Shown here in pieces: positions 4,139 to 30,676 of a DNA stretch of 64,000 nt. Origin of the DNA: Burkholderia diffusa (GTDB taxonomy: Bacteria; Pseudomonadota; Gammaproteobacteria; Burkholderiales; Burkholderiaceae). Position 1 is the first letter of the stretch, and every line of letters begins with the position of its first letter. The stretch spans positions 2,232,001 through 2,296,000 of the forward strand of contig NZ_CP013362.1 of the NCBI RefSeq assembly GCF_001718315.1, given 5' to 3'. Both the position numbers and the translations under genes were made by a program. The notes under the pieces are model-generated. The model saw only the letters and a program-made list of their open reading frames with translations. It ran no database searches and was not told the DNA's origin.

Positions 4139-4154
4139 CGCTCGCCTCCGTCCG

Positions 4155-5144: not shown

Positions 5145-5322
5145 GAAGACTCACGTCGTGGAACAGCGGTCATTGTAAAACGTTCGGCCGGCCCCGCCGG
5201 TTGACGAAAGCCCGAGTTGCGCCACTTCGACGCACGTCGCGGCGGCCGTGGAGCCGGCCGCGGCCGGCGCCCCGGGACCGCCCCGGCCAGCAGCCGGTGC
5301 GGCGCGGCCAATCGCCGTCGCG

Positions 5323-8300
5323 CTAGCGCTGCATCGATTCCCACACCTTGTGCAGACGCTTGACAGAGACAGGCATCGGCGTGCGCAGTTCCTGCGCGAA
5401 CAGCGAAATTCGCAGTTCCTCCAGCAGCCAGCGGAATTCCGCGAGGCGCGGATCGGCGACGCCGCCGCGCTGCGACACCGCGCGCTGATACTGCTGGACG
5501 AGCGGCAGCAGTTCGCCGGACTGCTTCGCGTCGCGCGCCGGGTCGGCTTTCAGCTTGTCGATCCGCAGCGCGATGCCCTTCAGGTAGCGCGGGAAATGTG
5601 CAAGCTGCACGTAAGGCGTGTCGATCACGAAGCGCTTGCCGACCAGCGCGGCGAGCTGCTGCTGCAGATCGGCGTGCGCCTGTGCGAACGGCTTCGCCTG
5701 CGCGAGCTTCTTCGCAAGCCCCGCATACTCGGCGAGGATTTGCCCGACGAGCCGCGCGATCTCCTGCGCGAGCAGGTTCAGGCGGCTCCTGCCCTCGTCG
5801 CGACGCGCGTGGAAGCTCGCGTCGTCGTCGGGCAGCGGATCCTGCAGGCACGCGCGGTCGAGCGCCGTGTCGATCAGTTGGTCGCGCAGTTCGTCCTGCG
5901 TGCCGAGCGACATGTACTGCATCGCCATCTCGCGCAGCCCCGGCAGGTTCTTCTCGAGGAACTTGATCGGCTCCTTGAGCTGCAGCGCGAACAGCCGCCG
6001 CAAGCCGGCCCGGTGGATCCGCACGGCCTCCTCCGGTGAGTCGAACACCTCGACGTCGCAATGCGTGCCGCGATCGACGAGCGCCGGATAGCCGTACAGC
6101 GTCTGGCCGCGGCGGCGAATCTCGAGCAGCTCCGGGAGCTTGCCGAAGTTCCACGTCGTCAGGTTCTCGTACAGCGCGGTCGCGCCGGCGTCCGCCGGAG
6201 CGGCCGTGTGCGGCGCCGCGCCCTTGCCCGGCTTGCCGCCCTTCGCCGAACCCGGCGCCGCGGCGAGCGCCGGCGCGTCATGCGCATCGCCCTCGCCCGC
6301 TTCGCCGCCGGGTGCGATCGTCGACGCCGCCGCGATCTTCTGGAACTGCTGCTGCGCCTGCGCGCCGAGCTCCTGGCGCAGTTGCGCGAGATTGCGCCCC
6401 ATCGCGAGCTGGCGGCCATGCTCGTCGATCACCTTGAAGTTCATGAACAGGTGCGCGGGCAACGTCTCGAGCTTGAAGTCGGCCGTCTTCATCGCGACCT
6501 GGGTCTCGCCGCGCACGTCGGCGATCAGCGCCTCGACGAGGCCGCCCGCGCCGAAGCGCTCGCGGCCCGTGCGCTCGACGAAGCCGGCCGCGTATTCGGG
6601 CAGCGGCACGCAGTGCCGGCGCAGCTTCTGCGGCAGCGACTTCAGCAGCAGCTGCACCTTTTCCTTCAGCATCCCCGGCACGAGCCATTCGCAACGGCGC
6701 GCGTCGACCTGGTTCAGCGCGTAGAGCGGCACCGCGAGCGTCACGCCGTCGCGCGGCGTGCCGGGCTCGAAATGGTACGTGAGCGCCATCTCGACGCCGG
6801 CCATCGTCGCGCGCTTCGGGAACAGCTCGGTCGTCACGCCGGCCGCCTCGTGGCGCATCAGGTCGTCGCGCGACAGGTACAGCAGGCGCTGCTTCTCCTC
6901 CGCCTGGCCGCCCTTCCTCACCTCGTCGCGATACCAGCGCTCGAACGCGGCGCCCGTGTGAATACCCTCGGGAATCGCCTGATCGTAGTACGCGTAGATC
7001 AGCTCGTCGTCGACCAGCACGTCCTGGCGGCGCGACTTGTGCTCGAGCTGCTCGATGTCGGCGAGCAGCTTGCGGTTGTGCGCGAAGAACGGCAGCTTCG
7101 TGTCGAATTCGCCTTCGACCAGCGCGCCGCGGATGAACAGCTCGCGTGCGCGCGCCGGATCCTGCTTGCCGAACGCGACGCGCCGGCGGTGGTAGATCGG
7201 CAGCCCGTACAGCGTCGCGCGCTCGAACGCGCTGACCTGCGCGGGACGCTTCTCCCAATGCGGCTCCGACAGCGATTTCTTCAGCAGGTGCGCGCCGATC
7301 TTCTCGACCCACTCCGGCTCGATCTTCGCGAGGCAGCGCGCGTACAGCCGGCTCGTCTCGACGAGTTCGGCCGCCATCACCCAGCGGCCGGCCTTCTTCG
7401 CGAGCGCCGAGCCCGGCCACAGGTAGAACTTGATCCCGCGCGCGCCGAGATAGTGCGGATCGTCGTCGGCCTTCATGCCGAGGTTGCCGAGCAGGCCCGT
7501 CAACAGGGCGAGATGGACCTGCTCGTAGGTCGCTTCGACTTCGTTGAGCCGCCAGCCGTGCTCGCGCACCACCGTCAGCAGCTGCGAATGGACATCGCGC
7601 CATTCGCGCAGCCGCAGGTGCGACAGGAAGTTCTGCCGGCACGCGTCGACCAGCTGGCGGTTCGACTTCTTGTGCGCGACGGCTTCCTCGAACCACGCCC
7701 AGATCTTCAGCCACTGCAGGAATTCCGAGCGTTCGTCGGCGAACCGGCGGTGCGCCTGATCGGCCTGCTCCTGCGCGTCGATCGGCCGGTCGCGCGGGTC
7801 CTGCACGGACAGCGCGCTTGCGATGATCAGCACCTCGCGCAGCGACTGCTGGTCGCGCGCGGCGAGAATCATCCGGCCCACGCGCGGGTCGAGCGGCAGG
7901 CGCGCGAGTTCGCGGCCGAGCGGCGTCAGCGCGTTGTCGTCGTCGACCGCGCCGAGTTCGTTGAGCAACTGGTAGCCGTCCGCGATCGCGCGGCCCGGCG
8001 GCGGCTCGAGGAACGGGAACGATTCGATCGCGGTCAGGTGCAGCGACTTCATCCGCAGGATCACCGACGCGAGCGACGAGCGCAGGATTTCCGGATCCGT
8101 GAAGCGCGCGCGCGCCTGGTAGTCGCTTTCCTCGTACAAGCGGATGCAGACGCCGTCGGCCACCCGGCCGCAACGGCCCGCGCGCTGGTTCGCAGCGGCC
8201 TGCGAGATCGATTCGACCTGCAGCTGCTCGACCTTGTTGCGGTACGAGTAGCGCTTCACGCGCGCGAGGCCAGTGTCGACGACGTAGCGGATGCCCGGCA

Positions 8301-9513
8301 CCGTCAGCGACGTTTCGGCCACGTTGGTCGCGAGCACGATGCGGCGTGCGTTCGACGCCTTGAACACCTTGTCCTGGTCGGCCGCCGACAGCCGCGCGAA
8401 CAACGGCAGGATCTCGGTATGCGGCGGATGATGCTTGCGCAGCGCCTCGGCCGCCTCGCGAATCTCGCGCTCGCCGGGCAGGAACACCAGCACGTCGCCC
8501 GGGCCTTCGCGGCACAGTTCGTCGACCGCGTCGACGATCGCGTCCATCAGGTCGCGTTCGGCCTCGCGCGCGGTCTTCACGCGATCGCGGCCGCCCGTGC
8601 CTTCGGCGTTCTTCACGGCCGGGCGATCCTCGGCCACCGGCCGGTAGCGCATCTCGACCGGGTACAGCCGCCCGCTCACCTCGATCACGGGCGCCGGGCG
8701 CTCGTCGGTGCCGAAATGGCGCGCGAAGCGATCGGCGTCGATCGTCGCGGACGTGACGATCAGCTTCAGGTCCGGCCGCCTCGGCAGGATCTCCTTCAGG
8801 TAGCCCAGCAGGAAGTCGATGTTCAGGCTGCGTTCGTGCGCCTCGTCGATGATCAGCGTGTCGTACGCCTTCAGCAGCGGGTCGGTCTGCGTTTCGGCGA
8901 GCAGGATGCCGTCCGTCATCAGCTTGACGGACGCGCCCGGCGCGAGATTGTCGGTGAAGCGCACCTTGTAGCCGACCACTTCGCCGAACGGCGTGCCGAG
9001 CTCCTCGGCGATGCGCCGGCCCGTCGACGACGCGGCCAGGCGCCGCGGCTGCGTATGGCCGATCAGGCCCGTGCCGCCGGCGCCGAGGCCACGGCCAAGA
9101 TCGAGACAGATCTTCGGCAGCTGGGTCGTCTTGCCCGAACCCGTTTCACCGCAGACGATGACGACCTGATGACCGGCGATCGCGCGCGCGATTTCGTCGC
9201 GCTTGCCCGACACGGGCAGGCTTTCGGGGTACGTGATCGGCGGAACGGGATTGGGCGCGACGGCCGCGCGCGGCGGACGTTCGCGGCGCGGCGCGCGCTC
9301 GCCGGCGCCCTGCGGCGCGCCCTTCGCGGCCGGCTGGCCCGGCTCGCGGCGCGGCTCGTCGCCGCGCGGCCCGCGCGGCGGCTTGCCCGCCTGCTGTTGC
9401 TGCCGGCGCGGCGGCTGGCCCTGCTGCTGACGCGCATCGGCCGCACCATCCAGGTGCTTCGCCGACGGCGCGTTTGCCCGCGTCGGCGCGGGACTTTTAG
9501 GTACATTCGACAT
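5323..9513 (-). CDS. hrpA: ATP-dependent RNA helicase HrpA (DEAH box)
   Basis: This DEAH-box RNA helicase of 1396 residues is close to the usual HrpA length (about 1300). The Walker A motif GETGSGKTT is at about residues 122-130, DEAH at 224-227, and the motifs SATID, NVAETSLTVPG and QRAGRCGR follow in order. The helicase core is followed by HA2, OB-fold and the long DUF3418 C-terminal region. The first 90 residues are low-complexity, rich in Gln, Pro, Arg and Gly, and probably disordered; they lie outside the conserved core. E. coli HrpA acts on mRNA and on stalled or collided ribosomes. The ATG is only 23 bp from the divergent argA start. Confidence 0.96.
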   Translation of the reverse strand: MSNVPKSPAPTRANAPSAKHLDGAADARQQQGQPPRRQQQQAGKPPRGPRGDEPRREPGQPAAKGAPQGAGERAPRRERPPRAAVAPNPVPPITYPESLPVSGKRDEIARAIAGHQVVIVCGETGSGKTTQLPKICLDLGRGLGAGGTGLIGHTQPRRLAASSTGRRIAEELGTPFGEVVGYKVRFTDNLAPGASVKLMTDGILLAETQTDPLLKAYDTLIIDEAHERSLNIDFLLGYLKEILPRRPDLKLIVTSATIDADRFARHFGTDERPAPVIEVSGRLYPVEMRYRPVAEDRPAVKNAEGTGGRDRVKTAREAERDLMDAIVDAVDELCREGPGDVLVFLPGEREIREAAEALRKHHPPHTEILPLFARLSAADQDKVFKASNARRIVLATNVAETSLTVPGIRYVVDTGLARVKRYSYRNKVEQLQVESISQAAANQRAGRCGRVADGVCIRLYEESDYQARARFTDPEILRSSLASVILRMKSLHLTAIESFPFLEPPPGRAIADGYQLLNELGAVDDDNALTPLGRELARLPLDPRVGRMILAARDQQSLREVLIIASALSVQDPRDRPIDAQEQADQAHRRFADERSEFLQWLKIWAWFEEAVAHKKSNRQLVDACRQNFLSHLRLREWRDVHSQLLTVVREHGWRLNEVEATYEQVHLALLTGLLGNLGMKADDDPHYLGARGIKFYLWPGSALAKKAGRWVMAAELVETSRLYARCLAKIEPEWVEKIGAHLLKKSLSEPHWEKRPAQVSAFERATLYGLPIYHRRRVAFGKQDPARARELFIRGALVEGEFDTKLPFFAHNRKLLADIEQLEHKSRRQDVLVDDELIYAYYDQAIPEGIHTGAAFERWYRDEVRKGGQAEEKQRLLYLSRDDLMRHEAAGVTTELFPKRATMAGVEMALTYHFEPGTPRDGVTLAVPLYALNQVDARRCEWLVPGMLKEKVQLLLKSLPQKLRRHCVPLPEYAAGFVERTGRERFGAGGLVEALIADVRGETQVAMKTADFKLETLPAHLFMNFKVIDEHGRQLAMGRNLAQLRQELGAQAQQQFQKIAAASTIAPGGEAGEGDAHDAPALAAAPGSAKGGKPGKGAAPHTAAPADAGATALYENLTTWNFGKLPELLEIRRRGQTLYGYPALVDRGTHCDVEVFDSPEEAVRIHRAGLRRLFALQLKEPIKFLEKNLPGLREMAMQYMSLGTQDELRDQLIDTALDRACLQDPLPDDDASFHARRDEGRSRLNLLAQEIARLVGQILAEYAGLAKKLAQAKPFAQAHADLQQQLAALVGKRFVIDTPYVQLAHFPRYLKGIALRIDKLKADPARDAKQSGELLPLVQQYQRAVSQRGGVADPRLAEFRWLLEELRISLFAQELRTPMPVSVKRLHKVWESMQR

Positions 9514-9521
9514 GGGGGCGC

Positions 9522-9529
9522 ATTATAAT
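9522..9529. promoter_or_regulatory. Palindromic -10 element shared by hrpA and argA
   Basis: The only AT-rich patch between the divergent start codons of hrpA (9513) and argA (9537) is the perfect palindrome ATTATAAT. It supplies TATAAT in both directions, at 9524-9529 on plus and 9527-9522 on minus. Initiation about seven bases downstream would fall on or next to each start codon, giving leaderless or nearly leaderless mRNAs. No clear -35 was found in either direction, so use of the element is inferred. Confidence 0.5.
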
Positions 9530-9536
9530 CCCGCCC

Positions 9537-10916
9537 ATGAATTCCCAAACCGACCTCCCACCCGCCCAGACCGGCGCCGCGACGCCGCCGGCCGCCGACG
9601 ATTCGGCCGCCAGCCACGCTCAGTTCGTCGACTGGATGCGCTCCGTCGCGCCCTACATCCACAAGTTCCGCAACAGCACGTTTGTCGTGGGGTTCGGCGG
9701 CGAGGTGGTGCAGCAGGGGCTGCTGAATGCGCTCGTGTCCGACATCGCGCTCCTGCAGGCGATGGGCATCCAGATCGTGCTCGTGCACGGCTCGCGGCCG
9801 CAGGTCGAGGAGCAGCTGAGCCTGCATGGTGTCGAATCCGAGTTTTCGCACGGTCTGCGCATCACCGATGCACGCGCGCTCGAATCCGCGAAGGAAGCGG
9901 CCGGCGAAGTGCGTCTCGACATCGAGGCGGCGATCAGCCAGGGTCTGCCGAACTCGCCGATGGCGCACGCGCACATCAGCGTCGTGTCCGGCAACTTCGT
10001 GACCGCACGGCCGGTGGGGATTCTCGACGGGGTCGATTTCGCGCACACGGGCATCGTGCGCAAGATCGACGCCGAATCGATCCGTCATTCGCTCGCGAGC
10101 CGCAAGCTCGTGCTGCTGTCGCCGCTCGGCTTCTCGCCGACCGGCGAGGCGTTCAACCTGTCGATGGAAGACGTCGCGTCGGCCGCCGCGATCGCGCTGC
10201 GCGCCGACAAGATCATCTTCCTGACCGAAGCGCCCGGCATCGTCGACGATGAAGGCGAGCTGGTGCGTGAAATGTCGCTCGACGCAGCCGCCGAGCTGCT
10301 CGATTCCGGCAACATCCAGGGCGACGACGCGTTCTTCCTTAAGCACTCGATCCGCGCATGCCGCGGCGGCGTGACCCGGGCCCACCTGATTCCGCAGTCG
10401 CTCGACGGCAGCATGCTGCTCGAACTGTTCCTGCACGACGGCGTCGGCACGATGATCTCGTACGAGAACCTCGAAAGCCTGCGCGAAGCGACGCCGGACG
10501 ACGTCGGCGGCATCCTGTCGCTGATCGAGCCGCTCGAGTCGGACGGCACGCTGGTGCGGCGCGGCCGCCACCAGATCGAACGCGACATCGACCACTTCTC
10601 GGTGATCGAGCACGATGGCGTGCTGTTCGGCTGCGCGGCGCTGTATCCGTACCAGCAGGAGAAGATCGGCGAGATGGCGTGCCTGACGGTCGCGCCGGAA
10701 GCACAGGGTTCGGGCGACGGCGAACGCCTGCTCAAGCGCATCGAGCAGCGCGCCCGCGCGCGCGGCCTCACGCACATCTTCGTGCTCACGACGCGCACCG
10801 AGCACTGGTTCCTCAAGCGCGGCTTCGTCAAGGTCAGCGTCGACGACCTGCCGGAAGACCGCCGCAAACTCTACAACTGGCAGCGCAAGTCGCTCGTGCT
10901 GATGAAGCAGCTCTGA
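9537..10916 (+). CDS. argA: Amino-acid N-acetyltransferase (N-acetylglutamate synthase)
   Basis: ArgA catalyses the first step of arginine synthesis, acetylating glutamate with acetyl-CoA in the cytosol. The 459 residues comprise an amino acid kinase-like regulatory domain (about 40-300, with [13 protein letters not shown]) and a C-terminal GNAT domain (about 310-459). The GNAT acetyl-CoA region reads [19 protein letters not shown]. Feedback inhibition by arginine through the kinase-like domain is known for the family. The start lies 7 bases from a TATAAT motif and has no ribosome site, which suggests leaderless translation. The length agrees with proteobacterial ArgA. Confidence 0.95.
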
Positions 10917-22175: not shown

Positions 22176-22250
22176 GGGCGGTTAGCTCAGCGGTAGAGCA
22201 CTGCCTTCACACGGCAGGGGTCACTGGTTCGATCCCAGTACCGCCCACCA
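22176..22250 (+). tRNA. tRNA-Val(CAC)
   Basis: A complete 75-nt cloverleaf can be folded by eye. The acceptor stem is GGGCGGT/ACCGCCC, the D stem GCTC/GAGC, and the anticodon stem CTGCC/GGCAG encloses TTCACAC with anticodon CAC (codon GUG). The variable loop has five bases, the T stem is ACTGG/CCAGT with TTCGATC, and CCA is encoded. Its 3' end is the attachment site of the island that follows, and the tRNA remains intact. Confidence 0.96.
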
Positions 22251-22256
22251 AAGAAT
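22237..22256 (+). other. Left attachment site (attL) at tRNA 3' end
   Basis: AGTACCGCCCACCAAAGAAT covers the last 14 bases of tRNA-Val plus six bases beyond. It recurs at 30658-30676 with one C missing. The repeats bracket the integrase, AlpA and replication genes, so they are taken as the ends of the integrated element. Confidence 0.8.
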
Positions 22257-22283
22257 ATTCCGGGGTGTTCTCGGAACATCCCG

Positions 22284-22318
22284 AAACCCGCTTAGCTGCA
22301 AGGCTTAGCGGGTTTTTT
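22284..22318 (+). terminator. Terminator inside the island, replacing that of tRNA-Val
   Basis: AACCCGCT pairs with AGCGGGTT, with an inner three-pair extension after one T-T mismatch, and a run of six T follows from 22313. It lies 34 bases after the tRNA and inside the element. The presumed original terminator is now 8.4 kb away at 30679. Confidence 0.8.
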
Positions 22319-22355
22319 CATTCCCGGGAATTCCGGAAAACGCCAACGGCAGCCG

Positions 22356-22384
22356 GGGGTATGTAGGGGTATTTTTAGGGGTAC
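22356..22384 (+). repeat. GGGGTA repeats, left end (candidate integrase arm sites)
   Basis: GGGGTA occurs three times at 22356, 22366 and 22378, spaced 10 and 12 bases, about one helical turn apart. The block lies between the attachment site and the integrase start. Related copies near the right end (30576 and 30588) suggest arm-type sites for the integrase N-terminal domain or sites for the AlpA-like factor. Confidence 0.55.
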
Positions 22385-22423
22385 GCGCCGCGAAATGCTG
22401 CGCGTCCGCTCGGAGATACCCCC

Positions 22424-23668
22424 ATGCCGCTCACCGACATCGCAATCAAGAACGCAAGGGCCGGCGACAAGCCGCAGAAGCTGTTTGACGGCGGCGGTCT
22501 GTTCCTACTCGTCACGCCGGCAGGACAGCGCTACTGGCGGTTCAAGTACCGAATCGCCGGTAAGGAAAAGTTGCTCGCGTTCGGCGTCTATCCGGACGTA
22601 TCGCTACAAGCGGCGCGCAAGAAGCGCGATGACGCCCGCGAGAAGCTGGCGGCCGGTATCGATCCCGGCGAAGCGAAGAAGGCGGACAAGCGCGCCGCCC
22701 GCCTCGCCGCCGCGACGAGCTTCGAAGCCGTTACGCGCGAATGGTTCAACAAGCATTCGCCCGGATGGGCAACAAGCCATTCGAGCAAGATCATCGCCCG
22801 CTTCGAAAACGATGTGTTCCCGTGGCTCGGGAAGCGCCCTATCTCCGAAATTCAGCCGGCCGAGGTGTTCGACGTTATCCGCAGGATCGAAGCACGCGGA
22901 ACGCTCGACACGGCCCACCGGGCGAAACAGAACTGCGGCCAAGTATTCCGATATGCCGTCGCAACCGGTCGCGCAACGCGCGACGTAACGGCCGACCTTC
23001 GTGGCGCACTTCCGCCGATCCGACAAAAGCATTTCGCGGCCATCACTGACCCCGGCAAGGTCGGCGAGTTGCTGCGTGCGTTCGACGCCTTCGGCGGTAC
23101 GTTTCCGGTTCACTGCGCGCTCAAGCTCGCGCCGATGCTGTTCCGTCGCCCGGGCGAGTTGCGTGCCGCTGAATGGTCGGAAATCGACTTGGATAACGCG
23201 ACGTGGGAGATTGATGGCACACGCATGAAACGCAACAAGGCGGCCAAGATGGATGGCGGAGCGCATATCGTGCCCCTACCCGATCAGGCCGTCGCCATCC
23301 TGCACGAATTGCACGCGTTGACCGGCGACGGTCGTTACGTATTCCCCGGGGCACGCGACCGGAATCGACCAATGAGCGAGGCAACGATTAACGCCGCGCT
23401 GCGCCGGCTCGGCTACGATACGCGCACCGAAATCACCGGCCACGGCTTCCGAGCGATGGCGCGTACCATCATGGTGGAAGTGCTCGGTGTCGCGGTCGAG
23501 GTCATCGAATCACAACTGTCCCATACCGTGAAAGACCCGCTCGGACGCGCGTACAACCGCACGACCTTCCTTCCTCAGCGTCGCGAAATGATGCAGAAAT
23601 GGGCGGACTATCTCGACCGACTCAAGGCGGGTGCGGAAGTTATCCCGATAAGTGCATCGGCACGGTAA
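22424..23668 (+). CDS. Tyrosine recombinase / integrase (P4-type, DUF4102)
   Basis: The 414-residue integrase catalyses excision and integration at tRNA-Val. The N-terminal arm-binding domain starts MPLTDIAIKNARAGDKPQKL, typical of DUF4102. In the catalytic domain Arg about 242 (FRRPGELR), His340 and Arg343 (HGFR), His367 (LSHTV) and the nucleophile Tyr377 (GRAYNR) are all present, so the enzyme should be active. It points inward from the tRNA, as is usual for tRNA-targeting islands. Three GGGGTA repeats precede it. Confidence 0.95.
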   Translation: MPLTDIAIKNARAGDKPQKLFDGGGLFLLVTPAGQRYWRFKYRIAGKEKLLAFGVYPDVSLQAARKKRDDAREKLAAGIDPGEAKKADKRAARLAAATSFEAVTREWFNKHSPGWATSHSSKIIARFENDVFPWLGKRPISEIQPAEVFDVIRRIEARGTLDTAHRAKQNCGQVFRYAVATGRATRDVTADLRGALPPIRQKHFAAITDPGKVGELLRAFDAFGGTFPVHCALKLAPMLFRRPGELRAAEWSEIDLDNATWEIDGTRMKRNKAAKMDGGAHIVPLPDQAVAILHELHALTGDGRYVFPGARDRNRPMSEATINAALRRLGYDTRTEITGHGFRAMARTIMVEVLGVAVEVIESQLSHTVKDPLGRAYNRTTFLPQRREMMQKWADYLDRLKAGAEVIPISASAR

Positions 23669-23735
23669 GCGGTCGGTTTCCACTACTCACCTACGTCCAA
23701 GCGAAGGTGCCGTCGATTCGGTCGAACTCTCGTCG

Positions 23736-24173
23736 CTATGCATCCGCATAGGTAAGCGGCGGCACACCTATCAAACGGAACGGAGGCAGCTCAACGCCCT
23801 TACCCGTGTTCGGTTGAACATCGTCCCGCATCGCGCGCAGCAAGTCGTTCAACCGCCTGTCGTGCGTCGCTCGGCTTCGGTCTGCGTTGCGATAGGTTGT
23901 TTCGTCTTGGTACGCATATAAAGCCGCGAGAACTTCGCCCGATGCGACGAGCGCCAACGCGTTCAGCGCATCGGCATACCGCTCATGGGCAGCCGCCGGG
24001 ATGCTTCTACCCTCGATTACGCCGGAAAGTGCCGCGACGTACTCTCGATAGTGTTCCAACTTCGTTTTGCGCCAGTCCGCGTCATGCTCTCGTTTCCGAG
24101 TCAAATACGACGTTAGGATGACCCCTACAATCGCCAAACAACCCGTAACGACGCCGGTCAGCAAGGCGTTCAT
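23736..24173 (-). CDS. Small membrane-anchored protein of unknown function (island cargo)
   Basis: The 145-residue product is not recognised. It opens with one hydrophobic segment (MNALLTGVVTGCLAIVGVIL, residues 1-20), then a charged stretch RKREHDADWRKTKLEHYREY and an alanine-rich helical body, suggesting an inner membrane anchor with a cytosolic helical domain. It lies between the integrase and the 245-residue cargo gene, convergent with the integrase. This is a typical position for accessory, often phage-defence, genes in satellites, but no defence domain can be named. Confidence 0.6.
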   Translation of the reverse strand: MNALLTGVVTGCLAIVGVILTSYLTRKREHDADWRKTKLEHYREYVAALSGVIEGRSIPAAAHERYADALNALALVASGEVLAALYAYQDETTYRNADRSRATHDRRLNDLLRAMRDDVQPNTGKGVELPPFRLIGVPPLTYADA

Positions 24174-24571
24174 TGCGACTCTCCTTATGCGCCCCCGCGC
24201 GCCTGTCCGAAAGTTTAAGCGACAAACTGCACATTCCAGCGTATCCGCCCGGCCGGCGCACTCGGCGACGACAGATTTAGCACGCCCGTGCTTAATTTCG
24301 CGGCGGTAAAAATTCGCCTTGCGCCACGATCATCGGCGCGGTCGCGCTAGAGATTGGCTACCCCTACCCATCCTCATACGGCCCCATGGACGCACCGCAA
24401 AGCCCTTCAGCACGGCCCGCGCGCATCGGCCAAGGCAAAACGTCGGTGCGCACTCCGACCGCATAAGACGGCCCTCGACCAAGAAGCGACTCCTTGTCGA
24501 CGGTAAAATGCGGCTGAAACGCGACGCGTCTGGGTCATTCGACCTGTTTGGCGCCGCCCAAAGGAACAGGA
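24174..24571. other. Divergent intergenic region between two cargo genes
   Basis: This 398-bp stretch separates the starts of the two cargo genes. It should hold both promoters, but only a -10-like TAAAAT at 24504-24509 (plus) stands out and no matching -35 was found. A 91-codon frame at 24319-24594 overlaps the next gene and has no ribosome site, so it is not called. Confidence 0.4.
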
Positions 24572-25309
24572 ATGGACACGATAAAAGTCGTTGATCTTCT
24601 TAACACGTCGGGGCGAATTCTGGACGGAATGCGAAACCTCATAGTGCGTTCTCGACCGCCAAAGGGCGGCCCCGACCGTATGCGAGTGGCGCTGGTGCTG
24701 ACAATCGCAGAACAATTCGAGGCTGCCTTGCGGCTCGGAAATGCTCATATGAGCACACATGCGGCTACACACGTTCGCTCGATGATCGAAGCGCTAGTTG
24801 TCATGCGAAAGCTAAAGACGAATGCTGGCTACGTAAATCAGTTGCGTTACGACAAACTGCACGGGGAAAAACGTGTCTACGAGGGAATACTTGCCGATCC
24901 GAGCATTCCCGATGAAGCGAAGCTGCCGGTCAAGAATCGACTCGATACTTGTCTGTTGGAGTTCAACTCACTACATGCCGAAAAGTATCGCCCGAAGAAG
25001 ATCAGCCAGGAATTTGGCGATACTGGTCTTTTTCATCTCGTCGGCCCCTACGCGATGCTTTGCGGCTTTTCACATAACGACCTCGCAGTGCTCGCTTTTC
25101 GACATCAGGGCGATAGCAGTATGGTGTACAAGCAGGATGACGATCCCACGTTCGTGCAGTCCGTTTTTTCCACTGGTCTTATAGTGCTTATGGATGCCGC
25201 CCATCAGTTCGGCGAGATCGCGAAATTTCCGGACGATTATTTTGAGCCGATTTTTTCCTCCATGAACAAGGAGTGGCACGGCGTACTCGACAAGACCGTT
25301 GTAAGCTGA
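24572..25309 (+). CDS. Uncharacterised all-helical protein (DUF5677-like?), island cargo
   Basis: The 245-residue protein is soluble and predicted to be mostly helical. The segment from about residue 45 (VALVLTIAEQFEAALRLG, then THVRSMIEALVVMRKL) resembles the DUF5677-type helical family, but that assignment is tentative. The ATG at 24572 was chosen over a TTG at 24548 because AGGAACAGGA precedes it. Codon use is less GC-biased than in the chromosomal flanks. It is the only gene besides the integrase on the plus strand, fitting an independently expressed cargo gene. No catalytic motif was recognised. Confidence 0.65.
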   Translation: MDTIKVVDLLNTSGRILDGMRNLIVRSRPPKGGPDRMRVALVLTIAEQFEAALRLGNAHMSTHAATHVRSMIEALVVMRKLKTNAGYVNQLRYDKLHGEKRVYEGILADPSIPDEAKLPVKNRLDTCLLEFNSLHAEKYRPKKISQEFGDTGLFHLVGPYAMLCGFSHNDLAVLAFRHQGDSSMVYKQDDDPTFVQSVFSTGLIVLMDAAHQFGEIAKFPDDYFEPIFSSMNKEWHGVLDKTVVS

Positions 25310-25566
25310 TGTCGTTCAAGTTGCGCGGGAGGGTGTTAGTGTTAGCGAGCAGCACTGCTGCTTCGAACGTCTTATATCGGTGATACAGCGGACCGGCACC
25401 TATGCTGACTCGGGCGACTCAACCGGGTCGATGAGCGACCTTCATTTCGCCGCAAACTTACGAAGAACATCCGTCGAGAGAGTTTCGCTTCGGTCAATAG
25501 CTTGTGGACGATAAGGCGGCGCACGGGCGCGGCTCAAGCCGTCGATGCACGCCGCCCTGTGTACGG

Positions 25567-26259
25567 CTAGTTCCCGTAGCCTGCGACTTCGGCCAACAGG
25601 TCGCTATACGGTCGCGAAAGACGAGTTTCCCACTTCTGGCGCGGCACGAATTCGAACATCGGCTGAAGTGCCTCATCCACGCACGCGCGTACACGCGATA
25701 CCAGTTCGCCGCTCGAAATCGAGCCGTCGTGGACAAGCGCACGAATGTTTCGTTGAGCTTCGGCGATTTTCTCGCGAGCCGCCTTGATTTGGGGCATGTT
25801 CGTCGTAACGTTGCCGACGCGAGCGCCCAGCCAGTTTTTCTCCGTGAATACGTCGGTCCGAACTGCGGCGCGCAGCAAATCATCGGCGCTCGACAACTCG
25901 TCGAGCGCCTCGCCGACTTCGGGCGGCGCGGTGCGTTCGAGTTCGGTCAAGATGCGCTGCCGCCTCCCCTCGTGCATCTGCGACGTAACAACGTGCCGGG
26001 TACGCGCGTCCACCATCGCGCGTTCGGCGTCGCGGTAAGCCGTTTCGGCCTTGATGAAATCGGCTTCCGTCCGCGTCGCTTCTTTCGCCGAGGCGGAAAG
26101 CTCGCGTTCGGGATTCGGCACCGCCTTCAGTTCGCGCGCCAGTTCGGCGCGACGCGCATCGAGCTTCGCTCGTTGTTTCGCCGCGAGTTCGTCGGCGAGG
26201 CCGGTATCGGAGACGAGCGCTTCGAGGATTTCCATACGCTCGGGCAGGGGTTTTTTCAT
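25567..26259 (-). CDS. Coiled-coil protein of unknown function (island)
   Basis: The 230-residue product is rich in Ala, Arg and Glu, with heptad-like charged helices from about residue 25 to 110 and again near 165-200; it probably forms a coiled coil. The ATG at 26259 is preceded by GGAGAATGTC. It is the last gene of the minus-strand replication series and lies 20 bp after the 61-residue ORF. No family is recognised. It could be a structural, regulatory or phage-interacting protein of the element. Confidence 0.6.
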   Translation of the reverse strand: MKKPLPERMEILEALVSDTGLADELAAKQRAKLDARRAELARELKAVPNPERELSASAKEATRTEADFIKAETAYRDAERAMVDARTRHVVTSQMHEGRRQRILTELERTAPPEVGEALDELSSADDLLRAAVRTDVFTEKNWLGARVGNVTTNMPQIKAAREKIAEAQRNIRALVHDGSISSGELVSRVRACVDEALQPMFEFVPRQKWETRLSRPYSDLLAEVAGYGN

Positions 26260-26279
26260 GACATTCTCCAAAAGGCGCG

Positions 26280-26465
26280 TTAGCGCGGGATTACGACGAT
26301 GTAACCTGCGGGACAAATTTCGACGCGGTACTTCACCGGGCCGGGCTTCACTACTTGGTATGGCGTCCGGCCGCCCGGACCGGGCCAAACGAGCATGCTG
26401 TAACTGCCATGCGCGGCGTCAAAATTCAGCCGCTCCAGAAGCCATTTCTGAACAGACACTTCCAT
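26280..26465 (-). CDS. Small hypothetical protein (61 aa, island)
   Basis: This short frame encodes MEVSVQKWLLERLNFDAAHG followed by a Pro/Gly-rich middle and a hydrophobic end CPAGYIVVIPR. It fits tightly between the SSB-like and coiled-coil genes on the same strand, and an AGGGG element lies about ten bases upstream. The copy of TAGGGGTAC just before it resembles the end repeats of the island. The function is unknown, and the gene call rests mainly on spacing. Confidence 0.5.
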   Translation of the reverse strand: MEVSVQKWLLERLNFDAAHGSYSMLVWPGPGGRTPYQVVKPGPVKYRVEICPAGYIVVIPR

Positions 26466-26524
26466 TATTTCGTACCCCTATTTACTGACGTAAAACACCT
26501 TCACCGTACGGGTTGCCCCGCGCC

Positions 26525-26956
26525 CTAGAAATCGTCCTGCATGTCCGACGTGTCGTCGCTGTAGAACGCCGCCGCCTGCCGTGTGCCAGACATCGCCGGC
26601 CGACCGCTTTCGCGTTCGCTGCTGTCGCCCGCGCCATGCACGGCGGCGCGCTTGCGCCGGACGTGATACGCCGACAGCGCCGCGTGCGCGACCATATCGA
26701 GCGACGGCTTAGCTTCGCCATTGCGGTCGGTCCAAACCTTCGGCGTCAGCGTCCCGGCGAGCGCGACCGAATCGCCGTCATCGAGCGCCAACAAGGCGGC
26801 CTTCGCATCGTCCGCGAACGCGATGATGTTGACGAACAGCGCTTCGCCGTCGCTAGCAGCAGCACGAACCTTCGCCGTCACGAACGAGCGACCGCTCGCG
26901 CCCATGCGCTCTGCCGACTTGCCGTGCAGCTTCCCGCTAACCAAACCATCAATCAT
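26525..26956 (-). CDS. Single-stranded DNA-binding-like protein (OB fold)
   Basis: The 143-residue protein looks like a divergent SSB. It begins MIDGLVSGKLHGK, has the strand pattern SFVTAKVRAA and FVNIIAFADDAK, and the segment LAGTLTPKVWTDRNGEAKPS is typical of SSB strand 4-5. The C-terminus ends in the acidic tip DMQDDF, comparable to the DDDIPF tip that recruits partners in bacterial SSB. It is encoded downstream of the RepA-like ATPase and a repeat cluster, supporting a role in replication of the element. Confidence 0.75.
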   Translation of the reverse strand: MIDGLVSGKLHGKSAERMGASGRSFVTAKVRAAASDGEALFVNIIAFADDAKAALLALDDGDSVALAGTLTPKVWTDRNGEAKPSLDMVAHAALSAYHVRRKRAAVHGAGDSSERESGRPAMSGTRQAAAFYSDDTSDMQDDF

Positions 26957-26995
26957 TTGCGCCTCCTGTTTTTATCAACCGCGCTCGGCACAGCT

Positions 26996-27093
26996 AGGTA
27001 CGCGTGGTACCCCCCTAAAGGGGGGTGTACCTAAACGTACCTATCGGGTTAGGTACCCGACAGGTACGCGTACCTAAACGTACCTTCGCGTAC
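26996..27093. repeat. GTAC-centred iteron cluster, candidate replication origin
   Basis: Within about 100 bp there are nine GTAC-centred units. GTACCTAAACGTACCT occurs twice, identically, at 27027-27042 and 27070-27085, 43 bp apart. AGGTACGCG occurs at 26996 and 27062, and AGGTACGCGTACCT (27062-27075) is a perfect palindrome. A hairpin ACCCCCC-TAAA-GGGGGGT lies at 27009-27026. The cluster fills the gap between the RepA-like and SSB-like genes. It could be the island's origin bound by its RepA or primase, or an operator. Confidence 0.65.
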
Positions 27094-27098
27094 TGCCC

Positions 27099-28211
27099 TT
27101 ACTTGGCCGCATTCGCGATGCAGACAATCCCGGCTGCCTCGTGAATGGCATTCGCCTCAACCAAGGTTTGCATCGCGCGATAAACCGGACCGCTTTTGTA
27201 TCGGCCTGCGAGGTGCTTAACTACGTTGCTTTTTTTGATCCCAACCTTATGCGAAGCGAGGAATTCCAAGACTGCCCCCTCAACAGCCCCGTAACGCTTC
27301 TCGCTTTTGGGCTTCTCGGGTGCATTGGCCGGAACCACGACGCAACTCGTCGCGAGCTTCCCCCATTTCGTCGTGCCGAGCCCTACAACGTCGAGTCGAA
27401 AGCCGATACGCTCACCCTTGGTCGGCAAGTCGCGCTGTTTTGTAATTTCGGCACAACGGCCGCCTGCACCGTCCGTTACCTCAATTTCGGTATCGACGGC
27501 CGCGCGCACGCCGGACCATCCGCGCGCGCCGGCGGCGGCGTTCTTGCCGCTGTGGTGAATCAGCATGAAATGGGCTTCGCACTCCGTACGGATGCGGTCG
27601 AAGCGCTTGATGACGAGGCCCATATCTTGCCCTGCGTTCTCGTTCGCACCGGCACTCAGGCGAGCGAGGGTGTCGCCCACAATCAGGCGAACTTTCATTC
27701 CTCGTTCAGCCTCCAAGCGTTTCACGGTCGCGATGATTGCCGATGCATCGAAGTCGCTTTCGAACAGGTTCACCGGGCTTTGGATGATGGCGAAGTTAGG
27801 GACGCGCAGGCCGTAATATTTTTGGTACGCCTGAAGCCGGGCGCAAACCGATGCGGGAGATTCGGCCGCCAGGAACACGACGAGGCCCTGTTCCGTTTGG
27901 CGTCCCATCCAAGGCACGCCGCGCGCAACGGCCGCCGCCACGTCGATGCAAAAGAACGTCTTGCCACAGTTGGTATCGCCGTACAACACACTCCCGCCGT
28001 CTGTCGTGAGCACACCTTCGATCAATTCGTCGGGCGGGTCGTAATCGACCGGCAATTCATCCGCAAAGGCAACGTTGAGCGGCAATTCATCGCACACCGT
28101 AATCGCGTCACGCTCGGATTGCTTCGGGACGTGCCTGCCGTTTGCAACAGCAACGCGTACAGCATCCGCGCCGCCTTCGGCCGCCACATCGTTCAAATCA
28201 CGCCCCGTCAT
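27099..28211 (-). CDS. RepA-like AAA ATPase / hexameric helicase
   Basis: The 370-residue protein is of the RepA/AAA_25 type, RecA-fold ATPases that act as replicative helicases in plasmids and satellites. Walker A is GDTNCGKT, and LIVGDTLARLSAG carries the Walker B aspartate; MLIHHSGKNAAAGARGWSG is a typical RepA segment. The last 70 residues look like a winged helix (GIKKSNVVKHLAGRYKS). The start at 28211 overlaps the primase end by 14 bp. The repeat cluster lies just past its stop codon. Confidence 0.85.
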   Translation of the reverse strand: MTGRDLNDVAAEGGADAVRVAVANGRHVPKQSERDAITVCDELPLNVAFADELPVDYDPPDELIEGVLTTDGGSVLYGDTNCGKTFFCIDVAAAVARGVPWMGRQTEQGLVVFLAAESPASVCARLQAYQKYYGLRVPNFAIIQSPVNLFESDFDASAIIATVKRLEAERGMKVRLIVGDTLARLSAGANENAGQDMGLVIKRFDRIRTECEAHFMLIHHSGKNAAAGARGWSGVRAAVDTEIEVTDGAGGRCAEITKQRDLPTKGERIGFRLDVVGLGTTKWGKLATSCVVVPANAPEKPKSEKRYGAVEGAVLEFLASHKVGIKKSNVVKHLAGRYKSGPVYRAMQTLVEANAIHEAAGIVCIANAAK

Positions 28212-29010
28212 GACCGACCTCCACAAGCGTAACCTCTCGATCAGCGAGCGCCCACCGCTCCGCGCACGCATTCCCAGCCGTTACACCGGCCGGGTCATTG
28301 TCCGCGCCGACAACGAGGCTTTCGACGCCGGACAGGTGCGGGAACACGGCGAGATTACCTGCGTCGATGAGCGCCCAAACCGGCGCATAACCCCATGCGA
28401 GCGAAAGCGCCGATTCAATGCCTTCCGCAACGCCAAGCCCGCTCGTTACGGCCTCGTCGGGCCACAAGCGAATGACGCCGCCCGCCTTGCGATGCCCGCC
28501 GAGCAGCAGGCGCGGCGGGTCAACGTCAGCCTTGCGGCCATCGGTCCGAATCCAAGTTTTGTGCAAGGTCATGAATTCGCGCGTTACCGCGTGCGTCACG
28601 AGCCCGACAAGCGCCGGGCCGGCATAGCCGGTCGGATGCTTCAGCGAGGGATGCCAGCGCAAATCGCCATCGGAGGGCGGGATGCGGCAGTGCCGAGCGT
28701 CGAGATAGGCCAGCGCGTCGCCGGAAATGGTGCGACACGCGTTCCAAAGGTCGAACCCGTAGTTAGACAGGACGCGATGCTTCGCGAACGGCGTAACGAC
28801 CGGAATGCGCGCCATGCTACGCGCCGAGTCGTACACGCCGCGTTCGGGGCGGTACGTTTCCGTGATGTCGCATCGGAAACAGTGCGCGACGCCCGCACCG
28901 CTTGCGGCGATGGTCAGTCCGAGCGTCTTATCACGTTCGCCGCGCCCGCAAACGGGGCAACTCACGCGGTAGTTGCCGGTCGCGTAATGGCTCCATGCAA
29001 TCGCGCTCAC
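28198..29010 (-). CDS. Small zinc-finger/TOPRIM primase
   Basis: The 270-residue protein has a DnaG-type zinc ribbon near the N-terminus (CPVCGRGERDKTL, then CFRCD) and a TOPRIM domain in the C-terminal half with GVAEGIESALSL (catalytic Glu) and VVGADNDPAG (metal-binding Asp pair). It should make RNA primers for the element. In phage P4 the primase and helicase are fused in the alpha protein; here they are separate genes. The GTG start at 29010 overlaps the preceding stop (GTGA) and has GGGAGG upstream. Confidence 0.87.
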   Translation of the reverse strand: MSAIAWSHYATGNYRVSCPVCGRGERDKTLGLTIAASGAGVAHCFRCDITETYRPERGVYDSARSMARIPVVTPFAKHRVLSNYGFDLWNACRTISGDALAYLDARHCRIPPSDGDLRWHPSLKHPTGYAGPALVGLVTHAVTREFMTLHKTWIRTDGRKADVDPPRLLLGGHRKAGGVIRLWPDEAVTSGLGVAEGIESALSLAWGYAPVWALIDAGNLAVFPHLSGVESLVVGADNDPAGVTAGNACAERWALADREVTLVEVGHDGA

Positions 29011-29333
29011 GCGACCTCCCGCACTTTGAGCCAGCGAGCGAGCTTGCGGCGATCGGTGGTCGTGAGGCGATACACGCCTCGACGCACTTCTCGGCCGTCG
29101 CGGTCGATGTACGGAACGCGCTCGCACGGCAGCACGAGGCCCTTCGCGCGCAGGCTTGCGACGAGAGCGGGGGAGTTCGAGCAGCCGGCGAAATGGTCGA
29201 GTTCTTCACGCGACATCGGGCGGCGTTGCAGCACGGTCAGCGCACGCAGGTGACGGTGATTTTTCGTTCCGGTAAACTTGCGGTGTTGGTTCGCGCTCGT
29301 CGGCTTCGGTTGGCGGGCGTTTTTCTTTTTCAT
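29007..29333 (-). CDS. Small basic winged-helix-like protein (island)
   Basis: The 108-residue product is strongly basic at the N-terminus (MKKKNARQPKP). Residues about 30-108 look like a winged helix (LTVLQRRPMSREELDHFAG and VYRLTTTDRRKLARWL). Its stop overlaps the primase GTG by 4 bp, and its start is 4 bp after the AlpA-like gene, so it sits in a tight operon. It may be a DNA-binding accessory factor for replication or excision. No named family is certain. Confidence 0.7.
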   Translation of the reverse strand: MKKKNARQPKPTSANQHRKFTGTKNHRHLRALTVLQRRPMSREELDHFAGCSNSPALVASLRAKGLVLPCERVPYIDRDGREVRRGVYRLTTTDRRKLARWLKVREVA

Positions 29334-29337
29334 CGCC

Positions 29338-29553
29338 TCAGCCCTCGATGCGGTAGCCTGCGGGATTGGCAATCCACGCATCAACATCGGCACGCCGCCA
29401 TGCGACGGAACGTGCGCCGAGCCGGACGCATTGCGGAAAGGTACCCGCCTTCATGCGGGCGTAAATCGTCGAACGGCTTAAGCCGGTCTCGACCTCAATT
29501 TGCTTGCGACGGATGAGCGCCTGTTGGACTTGGTGCACCATATGCGGCTCCAT
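29338..29553 (-). CDS. AlpA-like HTH regulator / excisionase
   Basis: The 71-residue protein belongs to the MerR-like AlpA/Xis superfamily: an HTH (RKQIEVETGLSRSTIYARMK) followed by the wing with VRLGARSVAWRRADVDAWI. In P4-like elements AlpA activates the integrase and promotes excision. The ATG at 29553 was chosen because GGGAG lies seven bases upstream; a TTG at 29571 would add a short tail. It leads directly into the replication operon. Confidence 0.88.
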   Translation of the reverse strand: MEPHMVHQVQQALIRRKQIEVETGLSRSTIYARMKAGTFPQCVRLGARSVAWRRADVDAWIANPAGYRIEG

Positions 29554-29688
29554 GAGAACGCTCCCGGCCAACCCGGGAATGGAGCCAAGGCTATTGATGG
29601 CAACAGCTACGGCGACATATGCAACACCATGCGCCTTATTTGGCGCGGGTTTCCGGACAATTCGCGCAATAGCGAATGCAACAGCGGT

Positions 29689-30348
29689 TCAATCGACGCG
29701 ACGTTTGCGCCCGACGTTCGAAGTACTCCCGTGGGTAAACACGGAAACAGGTTTTGTGCTGAGTTTGGCCTTCGCGTCCTTGAGCAACGTCCCGATGCGT
29801 GCACGACTCACGCCATACCTGTCCGCGAGCTTCTGTTGCGTCATCGCCGGCAACTTCGACTGTTCGAGAAGTTGCATCAGGTCCGCGTTGCTCCACTTTG
29901 CGCCCGGTGTCCGCCCCACGACAGCGGCCCCGGATCGGCCCACGTCGCGTCCATGCTGGTCACTACCGCCCTTCGCGCGCGCGCGCATCCCAACACTGAT
30001 GATTTCTGCATGGGCGCGCAGCGAACGCCATACCAAGCTCGTACTGACATTCCCCGTCGTATCGTCGTTCTTGAAACACATGCGGATTTCGTTGAGCGCG
30101 GCACGAAATTTTTCCGCATCGGGAGCCATGTTCGCTTCCAACTCTTCAACGAATCGGTCGATGTCCCACAAGTTCGCGCCAGAAAACAGGGCGCGATCAG
30201 GATCGAGCCCGCTATCCGGATGAAACGCTCGCACGCCGAGCATAATCGCAAGGCTTTGGTTTTGCGGGTCCGCGTACTCGTAAGAGCCATCAAGCCTTTG
30301 CCGGCGTTGCGCCGTCGGATGACCTATCCAATCCCGTTCCTTGGTCAT
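29689..30348 (-). CDS. HTH domain protein, first gene of the island replication series
   Basis: The 219-residue protein has a C-terminal HTH (about residues 169-194, MTQQKLADRYGVSRARIGTL) and a basic tail ending GRKRRVD. The N-terminal 120 residues are not recognised; they contain SLAIMLGVRAFHPDSGLDP and an acidic helix. It is encoded at the right end of the island, upstream of AlpA, and may be its repressor or initiator. The start at 30348 follows AAGGGCG. Confidence 0.65.
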   Translation of the reverse strand: MTKERDWIGHPTAQRRQRLDGSYEYADPQNQSLAIMLGVRAFHPDSGLDPDRALFSGANLWDIDRFVEELEANMAPDAEKFRAALNEIRMCFKNDDTTGNVSTSLVWRSLRAHAEIISVGMRARAKGGSDQHGRDVGRSGAAVVGRTPGAKWSNADLMQLLEQSKLPAMTQQKLADRYGVSRARIGTLLKDAKAKLSTKPVSVFTHGSTSNVGRKRRVD

Positions 30349-30575
30349 TTCACGCCCTTCATGCGTGGCCTTCACAGTGGGCCCCCACCGGGCCGGTGAA
30401 GGGACCGGCTTTCGCTCCGTCGAGCTAGGCGGGGACAAGGATCAATTTACCGGGTTCGGGGACGTATCGCACGTTCGACTCGACAACTCGCCTTACCGCA
30501 AGCCGAGCTAGGAGAAGCATACGAGGAGTAGACCTGCAAACCGCTCGTGTCGAATGGGACAGCGGCCACCATCCG

Positions 30576-30594
30576 GGGGTATCTTTGGGGGTAC
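30576..30594 (+). repeat. GGGGTA repeats, right end of island
   Basis: GGGGTA at 30576 and GGGGTAC at 30588 are spaced 12 bases, in a block that begins CCGGGGGTAT exactly as the left-end block does (22353). They lie 64 bases inside the right attachment site. The 30349-30657 interval holds these repeats and no gene. Confidence 0.55.
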
Positions 30595-30657
30595 ATTCCA
30601 TTGGGCTAAGCGCTACCGGCCATACTAGACGTGGATTCCAAAGGACAATTTCAGGGA

Positions 30658-30676
30658 AGTACCGCCACCAAAGAAT
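30658..30676 (+). other. Right attachment site (attR), one base shorter than attL
   Basis: AGTACCGCCACCAAAGAAT repeats the left site except that one C of the CCC run is absent. The host-side sequence continues into a terminator hairpin that presumably belonged to tRNA-Val before integration. Confidence 0.78.

What the first reader, a model, noticed from the sequence alone, without database searches (positions are those of the whole stretch)
22237..30676. Compact satellite-like element with split primase, helicase and SSB in tRNA-Val
Between near-identical tRNA-Val ends sit a P4-type integrase, AlpA-like factor, small TOPRIM primase, RepA-like ATPase and SSB-like protein, yet no structural, packaging, lysis or conjugation genes. 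In P4 the primase and helicase are one protein; here they are separate, overlapping genes (GTGA and 14-bp overlaps). This may be a little-described family of Burkholderia satellites or replicating islands.
Basis: partly seen in the sequence, partly recalled or inferred. Interest (0 to 1): 0.75.

Follow-up and report, generated by a model that had tools for sequence, protein, structure and literature searches.

The report
Small Burkholderia phage-satellite-like island
An 8.4-kb mobile DNA island sits in a transfer-RNA gene of a Burkholderia chromosome; several close relatives carry a phage DNA-packaging gene, so it most likely spreads by hijacking phage particles, as known satellites do.

Summary
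Window 22245-30676 is an 8.4-kb integrated element with a 12-bp att core. In 25 of 29 comparable Burkholderia loci the tRNA-Val runs straight into the right flank, the empty site. It carries integrase, AlpA, a Toprim primase overlapping a RepA-type helicase, and SSB; no structural or conjugation family passed its cut-off.

New here: four relatives share its family-specific helical gene, span 8.2-8.7 kb and encode a P27 small terminase; one lies in this same chromosome. This supports a PICI-like satellite. But the window element lacks the terminase, and no helper was found.

The split primase/helicase is not the novelty: a packaged Pseudomonas satellite, AH14b, has it with the same 14-nt overlap, and relatives of this element fuse it.

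More novel: an origin-like iteron-plus-hairpin region whose iterons vary between relatives, and an orphan Rfam RNA, int-alpA. In 36 of 36 distinct copies examined, of about 100 found, a start codon follows within 26 nt. A hairpin around the ribosome-binding site varies yet keeps pairing. It looks like a cis-acting translation leader.

The parts
22176..22250 (+). tRNA-Val(CAC), integration target, left end
   Evidence: ARAGORN; Rfam
22245..22256 (.). attL core CCACCAAAGAAT
   Evidence: empty sites
22424..23668 (+). P4-type tyrosine integrase, 414 aa; R, HxxR and H..Y motifs present
   Evidence: Pfam; motif scan
23736..24173 (-). 145-aa protein, membrane helix by eye, at the slot where four relatives carry small terminase; no family over cut-off, one weak match to a PHROG of unknown function
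24300..24375 (-). conserved non-coding block, found upstream of the terminase gene or operon in three of the four terminase-bearing relatives (not detected in L026)
24548..25309 (+). DUF5677 cargo protein, 253 aa
   Evidence: Pfam; no PADLOC hit
25567..26259 (-). 230-aa all-helical protein specific to this element family
   Evidence: AlphaFold2 pLDDT 82
26280..26465 (-). 61-aa conserved ORF
   Evidence: 64-82% identity in 3 relatives
26525..26956 (-). SSB-like protein with acidic C-terminus ...DMQDDF
   Evidence: Pfam SSB at cut-off; alignment
26957..27098 (.). origin-like region: AGGTACG iterons plus C6-TTTA-G6 hairpin
   Evidence: 0 of 1000 shuffles reach the 7-mer count
27099..28211 (-). 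RepA-type helicase-like ATPase (AAA_25), Walker A/B, HHSGK, C-terminal tail of about 65 residues
28198..29010 (-). small primase, two CxxC and Toprim EG/DxD motifs; 14-nt overlap with helicase
29007..29333 (-). conserved 108-aa protein, stop/start GTGA overlap with primase
   Evidence: alignment
29338..29571 (-). AlpA-like regulator/excisionase
   Evidence: PF05930
29689..30348 (-). 219-aa regulator, weak sigma70 r4-like HTH near the C-terminus (below cut-off)
30351..30367 (-). hairpin CACGC/GCGTG presenting the ribosome-binding site AAGG in its loop
30369..30435 (-). int-alpA RNA (RF02996), 53.2 bits
30665..30676 (.). attR core CCACCAAAGAAT

Best explanation
The island is a compact phage satellite of the PICI kind. 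The integrase recombines the 12-bp core at the tRNA-Val 3' end, and AlpA probably drives excision. The primase and RepA-type helicase replicate the circle from the iteron-hairpin origin that lies between helicase and ssb, with the element's own SSB. The DNA is then packaged by the particles of a helper phage. The int-alpA leader probably controls translation of the regulator at 29689-30348, and so induction. Shown: integration, catalytic motifs present, origin-like repeats, and family relatives with small terminase. Inferred: excision, replication, helper, packaging, and that this terminase-less copy is still mobile.
For: Empty site in 25 of 29 loci. Synteny of seven window genes in G060. The family-specific helical gene was found in 6 of 398 family genomes, and four of those elements encode a P27 small terminase while the matching large-subunit family PF03354 was found in 0 of those 4 genomes. 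HK97-like prophages with P27-type terminases exist in the same genus (two loci looked at). Sizes att to att are 8.1-9.9 kb in eight elements. OLD/GajA-like and other AAA ATPase cargo occurs in three relatives. Catalytic motifs are present. AH14b, a packaged satellite, has the same integrase, AlpA, primase and helicase set.
Against: The window copy has no terminase, and no cos or pac site was identified. A DNA search of phages with 22700-30676 gave 8 records with short matches in the integrase and helicase genes only. Three scans of viral contigs found no relative. No P27 large terminase was found in the four terminase-bearing genomes, so no resident helper of that type. SSB relatives also occur alone on plasmids. 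Replication relatives sit with phage tail genes in G063.
Confidence: 0.68

Rival explanations
1. A self-replicating integrated island (integrative plasmid-like or mobilizable element) that moves by a conjugative or other non-phage route; the terminase in relatives is cargo.
For: No terminase in the window copy; 79 of 398 genomes hold the SSB family, in many contexts, some on plasmids.
Against: No relaxase family in the ten ORFs scanned; terminase 91-93% identical to that of L026 in the three other elements, at two different sites, tRNA-Arg and tmRNA, with differing cargo.
Confidence: 0.15
2. A defective remnant: a satellite that lost its terminase and packaging function and is now stranded, with DUF5677 and the 145-aa gene as insertions.
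For: The terminase slot is replaced while the block upstream of it is kept; attR differs from the tRNA end by one base outside the core.
Against: Replication and integration genes are open with catalytic motifs; the att-bounded elements L031, L105 and L106 also gave no terminase hit (tblastn; six of their ORFs scanned).
Confidence: 0.15
3. A prophage with structural genes lost by deletion.
For: Related replication modules lie beside tail genes in G063 and next to phage-type but not structural families in G361.
Against: Five elements with the family-specific gene and att repeats (window, L023, L026, sister element, G062) are alike in size, and no capsid or tail family was hit in those of their ORFs that were scanned.
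Confidence: 0.05

Closest known systems
Phage satellite AH14b of Pseudomonas sp. ANT_H14 (PMC4936722, passages read)
   Same: P4-type integrase, AlpA, separate Toprim primase (293 aa) overlapping a helicase gene by 14 nt, no terminase or virion protein of its own; packaged in helper capsids.
   Different: 16.8 kb, 29 genes, 600-aa helicase; has a tail-assembly homologue; no SSB, int-alpA RNA or helical family gene named in the passages read.
Gram-negative PICIs, e.g. EcCICFT073 (PMC6092414, passages read)
   Same: Integrase, AlpA, primase/replication genes, specific att site, terS in some members, phage-resistance cargo in some.
   Different: Helper and induction shown there, not here; primase-helicase arrangement and SSB differ; no terS in the window copy.
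P4-like satellites (PMC8628076, passages read)
   Same: Integrase type, AlpA, own primase and helicase functions.
   Different: No psu, delta, epsilon or alpha Pfam family detected in the window; Sid has only a custom profile in that paper and was not tested.
PICMI of Vibrionaceae (PMC10803314, passages read)
   Same: Small size, int, AlpA, primase, no capsid remodelling gene; defence cargo.
   Different: PICMI primase families are DUF3987/DUF5906 and the site is next to fis; here Toprim primase and tRNA-Val.

Membership tests
PICI (Gram-negative) | Integrase and AlpA-type regulator | tested here: met
   Pfam
PICI (Gram-negative) | Own replication genes (pri-rep) and origin | tested here: met
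   the origin is inferred from repeats, not shown
PICI (Gram-negative) | Specific attachment site, empty in relatives | tested here: met
   25 of 29
PICI (Gram-negative) | terS or phage cos/pac (terS only in some PICIs) | tested here: inconclusive
   terS in 4 close relatives, not in the window; no cos/pac recognised
PICI (Gram-negative) | Induction and packaging by a helper phage | not testable with these tools
   needs wet work
P4-like | psu, delta, epsilon, alpha | tested here: not met
   no such Pfam family among 10 proteins
P4-like | sid | not tested
   custom profile in PMC8628076, not available here
PICMI | DUF3987/DUF5906 primase and fis-adjacent site | tested here: not met
capsid-forming PICI | own capsid genes | tested here: not met
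int-alpA RNA (RF02996) | covariance-model score over gathering cut-off | tested here: met
   53.2 against 35.8 bits

The most novel reading that the evidence does not exclude
The orphan RNA class int-alpA, typed by Rfam as an sRNA gene, is really a cis-acting translation switch. The loop of its second hairpin can pair either with the RNA's own 3' tail (pseudoknot) or with the Shine-Dalgarno sequence, which sits in the loop of a further hairpin just before the start codon. It sets the induction decision of these satellites and of related prophages. The window element is then a modular satellite that has exchanged its terminase for other cargo, and may borrow the terminase of the sister element in the same chromosome.
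Probability: 0.35. Interest if true: 0.72.

Novelty: new variant of a known kind. Interest (0 to 1): 0.58.

Why it matters
It points to a satellite family in Burkholderia that the searches named in the report did not show as described, with two members in one chromosome and defence-like cargo in relatives. It links three things that can be tested: an origin whose iterons vary together with the helicase tail in most pairs, a swap of the terminase gene for other cargo behind a conserved upstream block, and a plausible function for an orphan RNA class found in 80 of 398 genomes of the family.

Tried and rejected
Split primase/helicase as the novelty: rejected (AH14b; fused frames). L111 aligns over the whole fused protein in one piece, but its open frame there is only 347 aa, so I do not count it as fused. 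SSB as family marker: rejected, it occurs in many contexts. The 60-bp block as a phage cos site: strong genus-wide hits only in four elements of the family; the 24 other listed hits are 24-39-nt matches in 21 other genomes, so no link to a prophage; and terminase-bearing L026 has no detectable block. Structured RNA in that block: weak, 2 of 19 predicted pairs with changes on both sides. Resident helper with the P27 large terminase: none in 4 genomes. Phages, plasmids, viral contigs: no close relative of the element. First scan of genome contigs with the primase: nothing. Structure search for the helical protein: never ran, machine busy; a sequence search of PDB gave only matches with E 0.13-0.14. 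Att repeats for L029, L024, L115, L116: none convincing; the tail genes in L029 may therefore belong to a neighbouring element. P. lacunae L247 has the helical gene, integrase and AlpA but no att repeat, SSB or terminase hit in what was fetched. The iteron/tail rule has an exception: window and L030 share the iteron but only 0.26 tail identity; L105 and the sister element show no iterons; iterons of L030, L032 and L116 were not tested against shuffles. A third P27-type neighbourhood (L190) was fetched but not scanned.
Full report
Setting. 

The element. tRNA-Val(CAC) ends at 22250. The core CCACCAAAGAAT recurs at 30665-30676. The right flank was found in 65 of 65 genus genomes; 30 loci were fetched, one of them the window's own. 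In 25 of the other 29 a tRNA-Val (one cut by the locus end) stands 5 nt before sequence aligning from 30676: the empty site. Three have only the tRNA 3' part, as expected beside another island, and one has no tRNA. In 1-kb windows GC is 53-64% inside, against 65-71% in windows outside.

Genes. The integrase reads inward from attL. DUF5677 reads with it; all else reads the other way. From attR: regulator with a weak C-terminal HTH match, AlpA, a conserved 108-aa protein, primase, helicase, SSB, a 61-aa ORF, a 230-aa helical protein, then a 145-aa protein. Primase CxxC and Toprim motifs, helicase Walker and HHSGK motifs and integrase motifs are present (motif meanings recalled). In eight proteins scanned no defence family was hit except a weak coiled-coil match of the helical protein's frame to JetC.

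Relatives. The closest full match is G060 (L023). Integrase 66%, 108-aa protein 71%, primase 75%, SSB 77%, 61-aa ORF 64% and helical protein 74% identical, with a different helicase and a distant AlpA (37%). It lies between 20-bp repeats near tmRNA, 8,222 bp apart. G043 (tRNA-Arg, 50-bp repeats, 8,510 bp), G039 (tRNA-His, 9,216), G240 (tRNA-Lys, 8,084) and G222 (tRNA-His, 9,906) are also bounded. The window element measures 8,420 on the same basis. In its own chromosome a second element sits at tRNA-Arg between 49-bp repeats, 8,697 bp apart, and G062 has its near twin with 8,442 bp. For several other related stretches tried by script no convincing att repeat was found.

Terminase. L023 and L026 encode a P27 small terminase (PF05119, 72 and 67 bits); L023 and the sister element also match phrog_83. 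In 65 genus genomes, hits of 91% identity or more occur in four genomes only, all inside these elements, the window's own genome among them. The other six of the ten hits are one 59% fragment with a stop, beside tRNA-Arg in G026, and five of 27-31%. In the two of those five whose neighbourhood I scanned, a large terminase (phrog_9) follows; in the one scanned further, portal, protease and major head protein too. The satellites' terminase is thus a diverged homologue of that of HK97-like prophages, as in PICIs that carry terS (PMC6092414, passages read). No PF03354 large terminase was found in the four genomes. The phage collection gave no match to the satellite terminase.

The window copy. No terminase was found by tblastn of two relatives' proteins or among its ORFs. 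A 60-70-bp non-coding block is kept (24300-24375). In L023 and G062 it lies directly upstream of the terminase, in the sister element upstream of an ATPase gene followed by terminase, and in the window upstream of the 145-aa gene. It was not detected in L026, which has a terminase. So the gene behind a conserved control or packaging site appears to have been exchanged. Which of the two it is cannot be told.

Family marker. The 230-aa protein was found in 6 of 398 genomes of the family (8 listed matches, two of them adjacent in G441), plus P. lacunae. Terminase was found with it in 4 of these 8 element loci. It has no Pfam hit over cut-off, no PHROG and no NCBIfam hit and is predicted as long helices (pLDDT 82, pTM 0.53). 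Capsid-size control is a guess only.

Cargo. G043 has an OLD/GajA-like ATPase, the sister element and its G062 twin other AAA ATPases. Beside another RepA relative in G062 (L030, bounds not established) lies a type III restriction-like pair. This fits the defence cargo known for satellites (PMC10803314, passages read). The window's DUF5677 and 145-aa genes have no PADLOC hit.

Origin. The 142 bp between helicase and ssb hold five AGGTACG copies on the two strands (0 of 1000 dinucleotide shuffles reach that) and a C6-TTTA-G6 hairpin. Six control intergenic stretches of the element showed no excess (130 to 996 of 1000 shuffles reach the count). Relatives have a like layout with other iterons: CGGGAAA, CGCACAA, CGCGACA, CCGGACA, ACCCCAG. 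Excess over shuffles was clear in L023 (a CG run), L026, L111, L115, L029 and L024, marginal in L031 (21 of 1000) and L106 (51 of 1000), absent in L105 and the sister element; L030, L032 and L116 were not tested. Among helicases, five of six same-iteron pairs keep the C-terminal tail (0.59-0.73) even where the core is less alike than in different-iteron pairs, e.g. L024-L111 core 0.62, tail 0.65, against L024-L106 core 0.73, tail 0.37. The sixth, window-L030, breaks the rule (tail 0.26), and window-L115 differ in iteron with tail 0.58. Iteron recognition by that tail is therefore a hypothesis.

int-alpA RNA. The window matches RF02996 at 30369-30435 (53.2 bits). Of 14 related stretches searched, eight have it (L031, L105, L106, L024, L029, L115, L116, L032) and six do not (L023, L026, L111, L173, L176, L030). 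The four terminase-bearing elements are all among the six. In the window and those eight, 9 of 9, an ATG of an ORF of 90 or more codons follows 16-21 nt after the RNA. In 398 family genomes 80 have the RNA, with 100 places listed. The 30 loci fetched are among the best-scoring; 30 of 30 have an ATG or GTG of an ORF of 60 or more codons within 10-26 nt, against 272 of 1500 random places. Three of the 30 repeat elements of the first nine, which leaves 36 distinct copies. In the 36 downstream segments the arms around the ribosome-binding site pair better than arms swapped between sequences (mean run 4.56 against 3.59, 0 of 5000; two of the 36 had runs of only 1 and 3). The second loop pairs better with its own 3' tail (5.33 against 4.60) and own leader (5.61 against 5.14) than with those of others (0 of 2000 each; the script probably misplaced that loop in L223 and L225). 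Relatedness of sequences can inflate such permutation tests. Rfam types the family as an sRNA; that its discoverers suggested action in trans is recalled, and a search for the name found one paper, on vesicle RNAs of E. coli, seen as a listing.

Literature. Ten searches showed no paper on such elements in Burkholderia in the rows listed. Subscription papers are mostly not held, and only listings were seen for all but five papers, of which I read passages. The nearest published system is AH14b.

Verdict. A real, discrete, mobile-looking element, most likely a PICI-like satellite of a family that I did not find described. Helper, excision and packaging remain unshown.

Noticed in passing
window 30351-30435: Rfam int-alpA RNA followed by a hairpin holding the ribosome-binding site; a like layout in the copies examined suggests a cis translation leader.
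   Followed up: yes
L029 (G063) 3869-9647: Phage tail genes (chaperone, tape measure, baseplate hub) directly downstream of an ssb and a fused primase-RepA gene; no head family hit among the ORFs scanned, no att repeat found.
   Followed up: partly
G000:C1 1317989-1326734: Second element of the family in the same chromosome at tRNA-Arg, with small terminase and an AAA ATPase.
   Followed up: yes
L177 (G026) around 9327-9649: Broken small-terminase fragment beside tRNA-Arg, a probable remnant of the same family.
   Followed up: no
window 22353-22385 and 30573-30596: GGGGGTA-type repeats near both ends, possible integrase arm sites.
   Followed up: no
L044, L060, L065: tRNA-Val right flank preceded by only the tRNA 3' part: other islands probably use the same site in other strains.
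   Followed up: no
L068, L069, L067: SSB of the same family standing without the element's other genes on Polaromonas and Paraburkholderia plasmids.
   Followed up: partly
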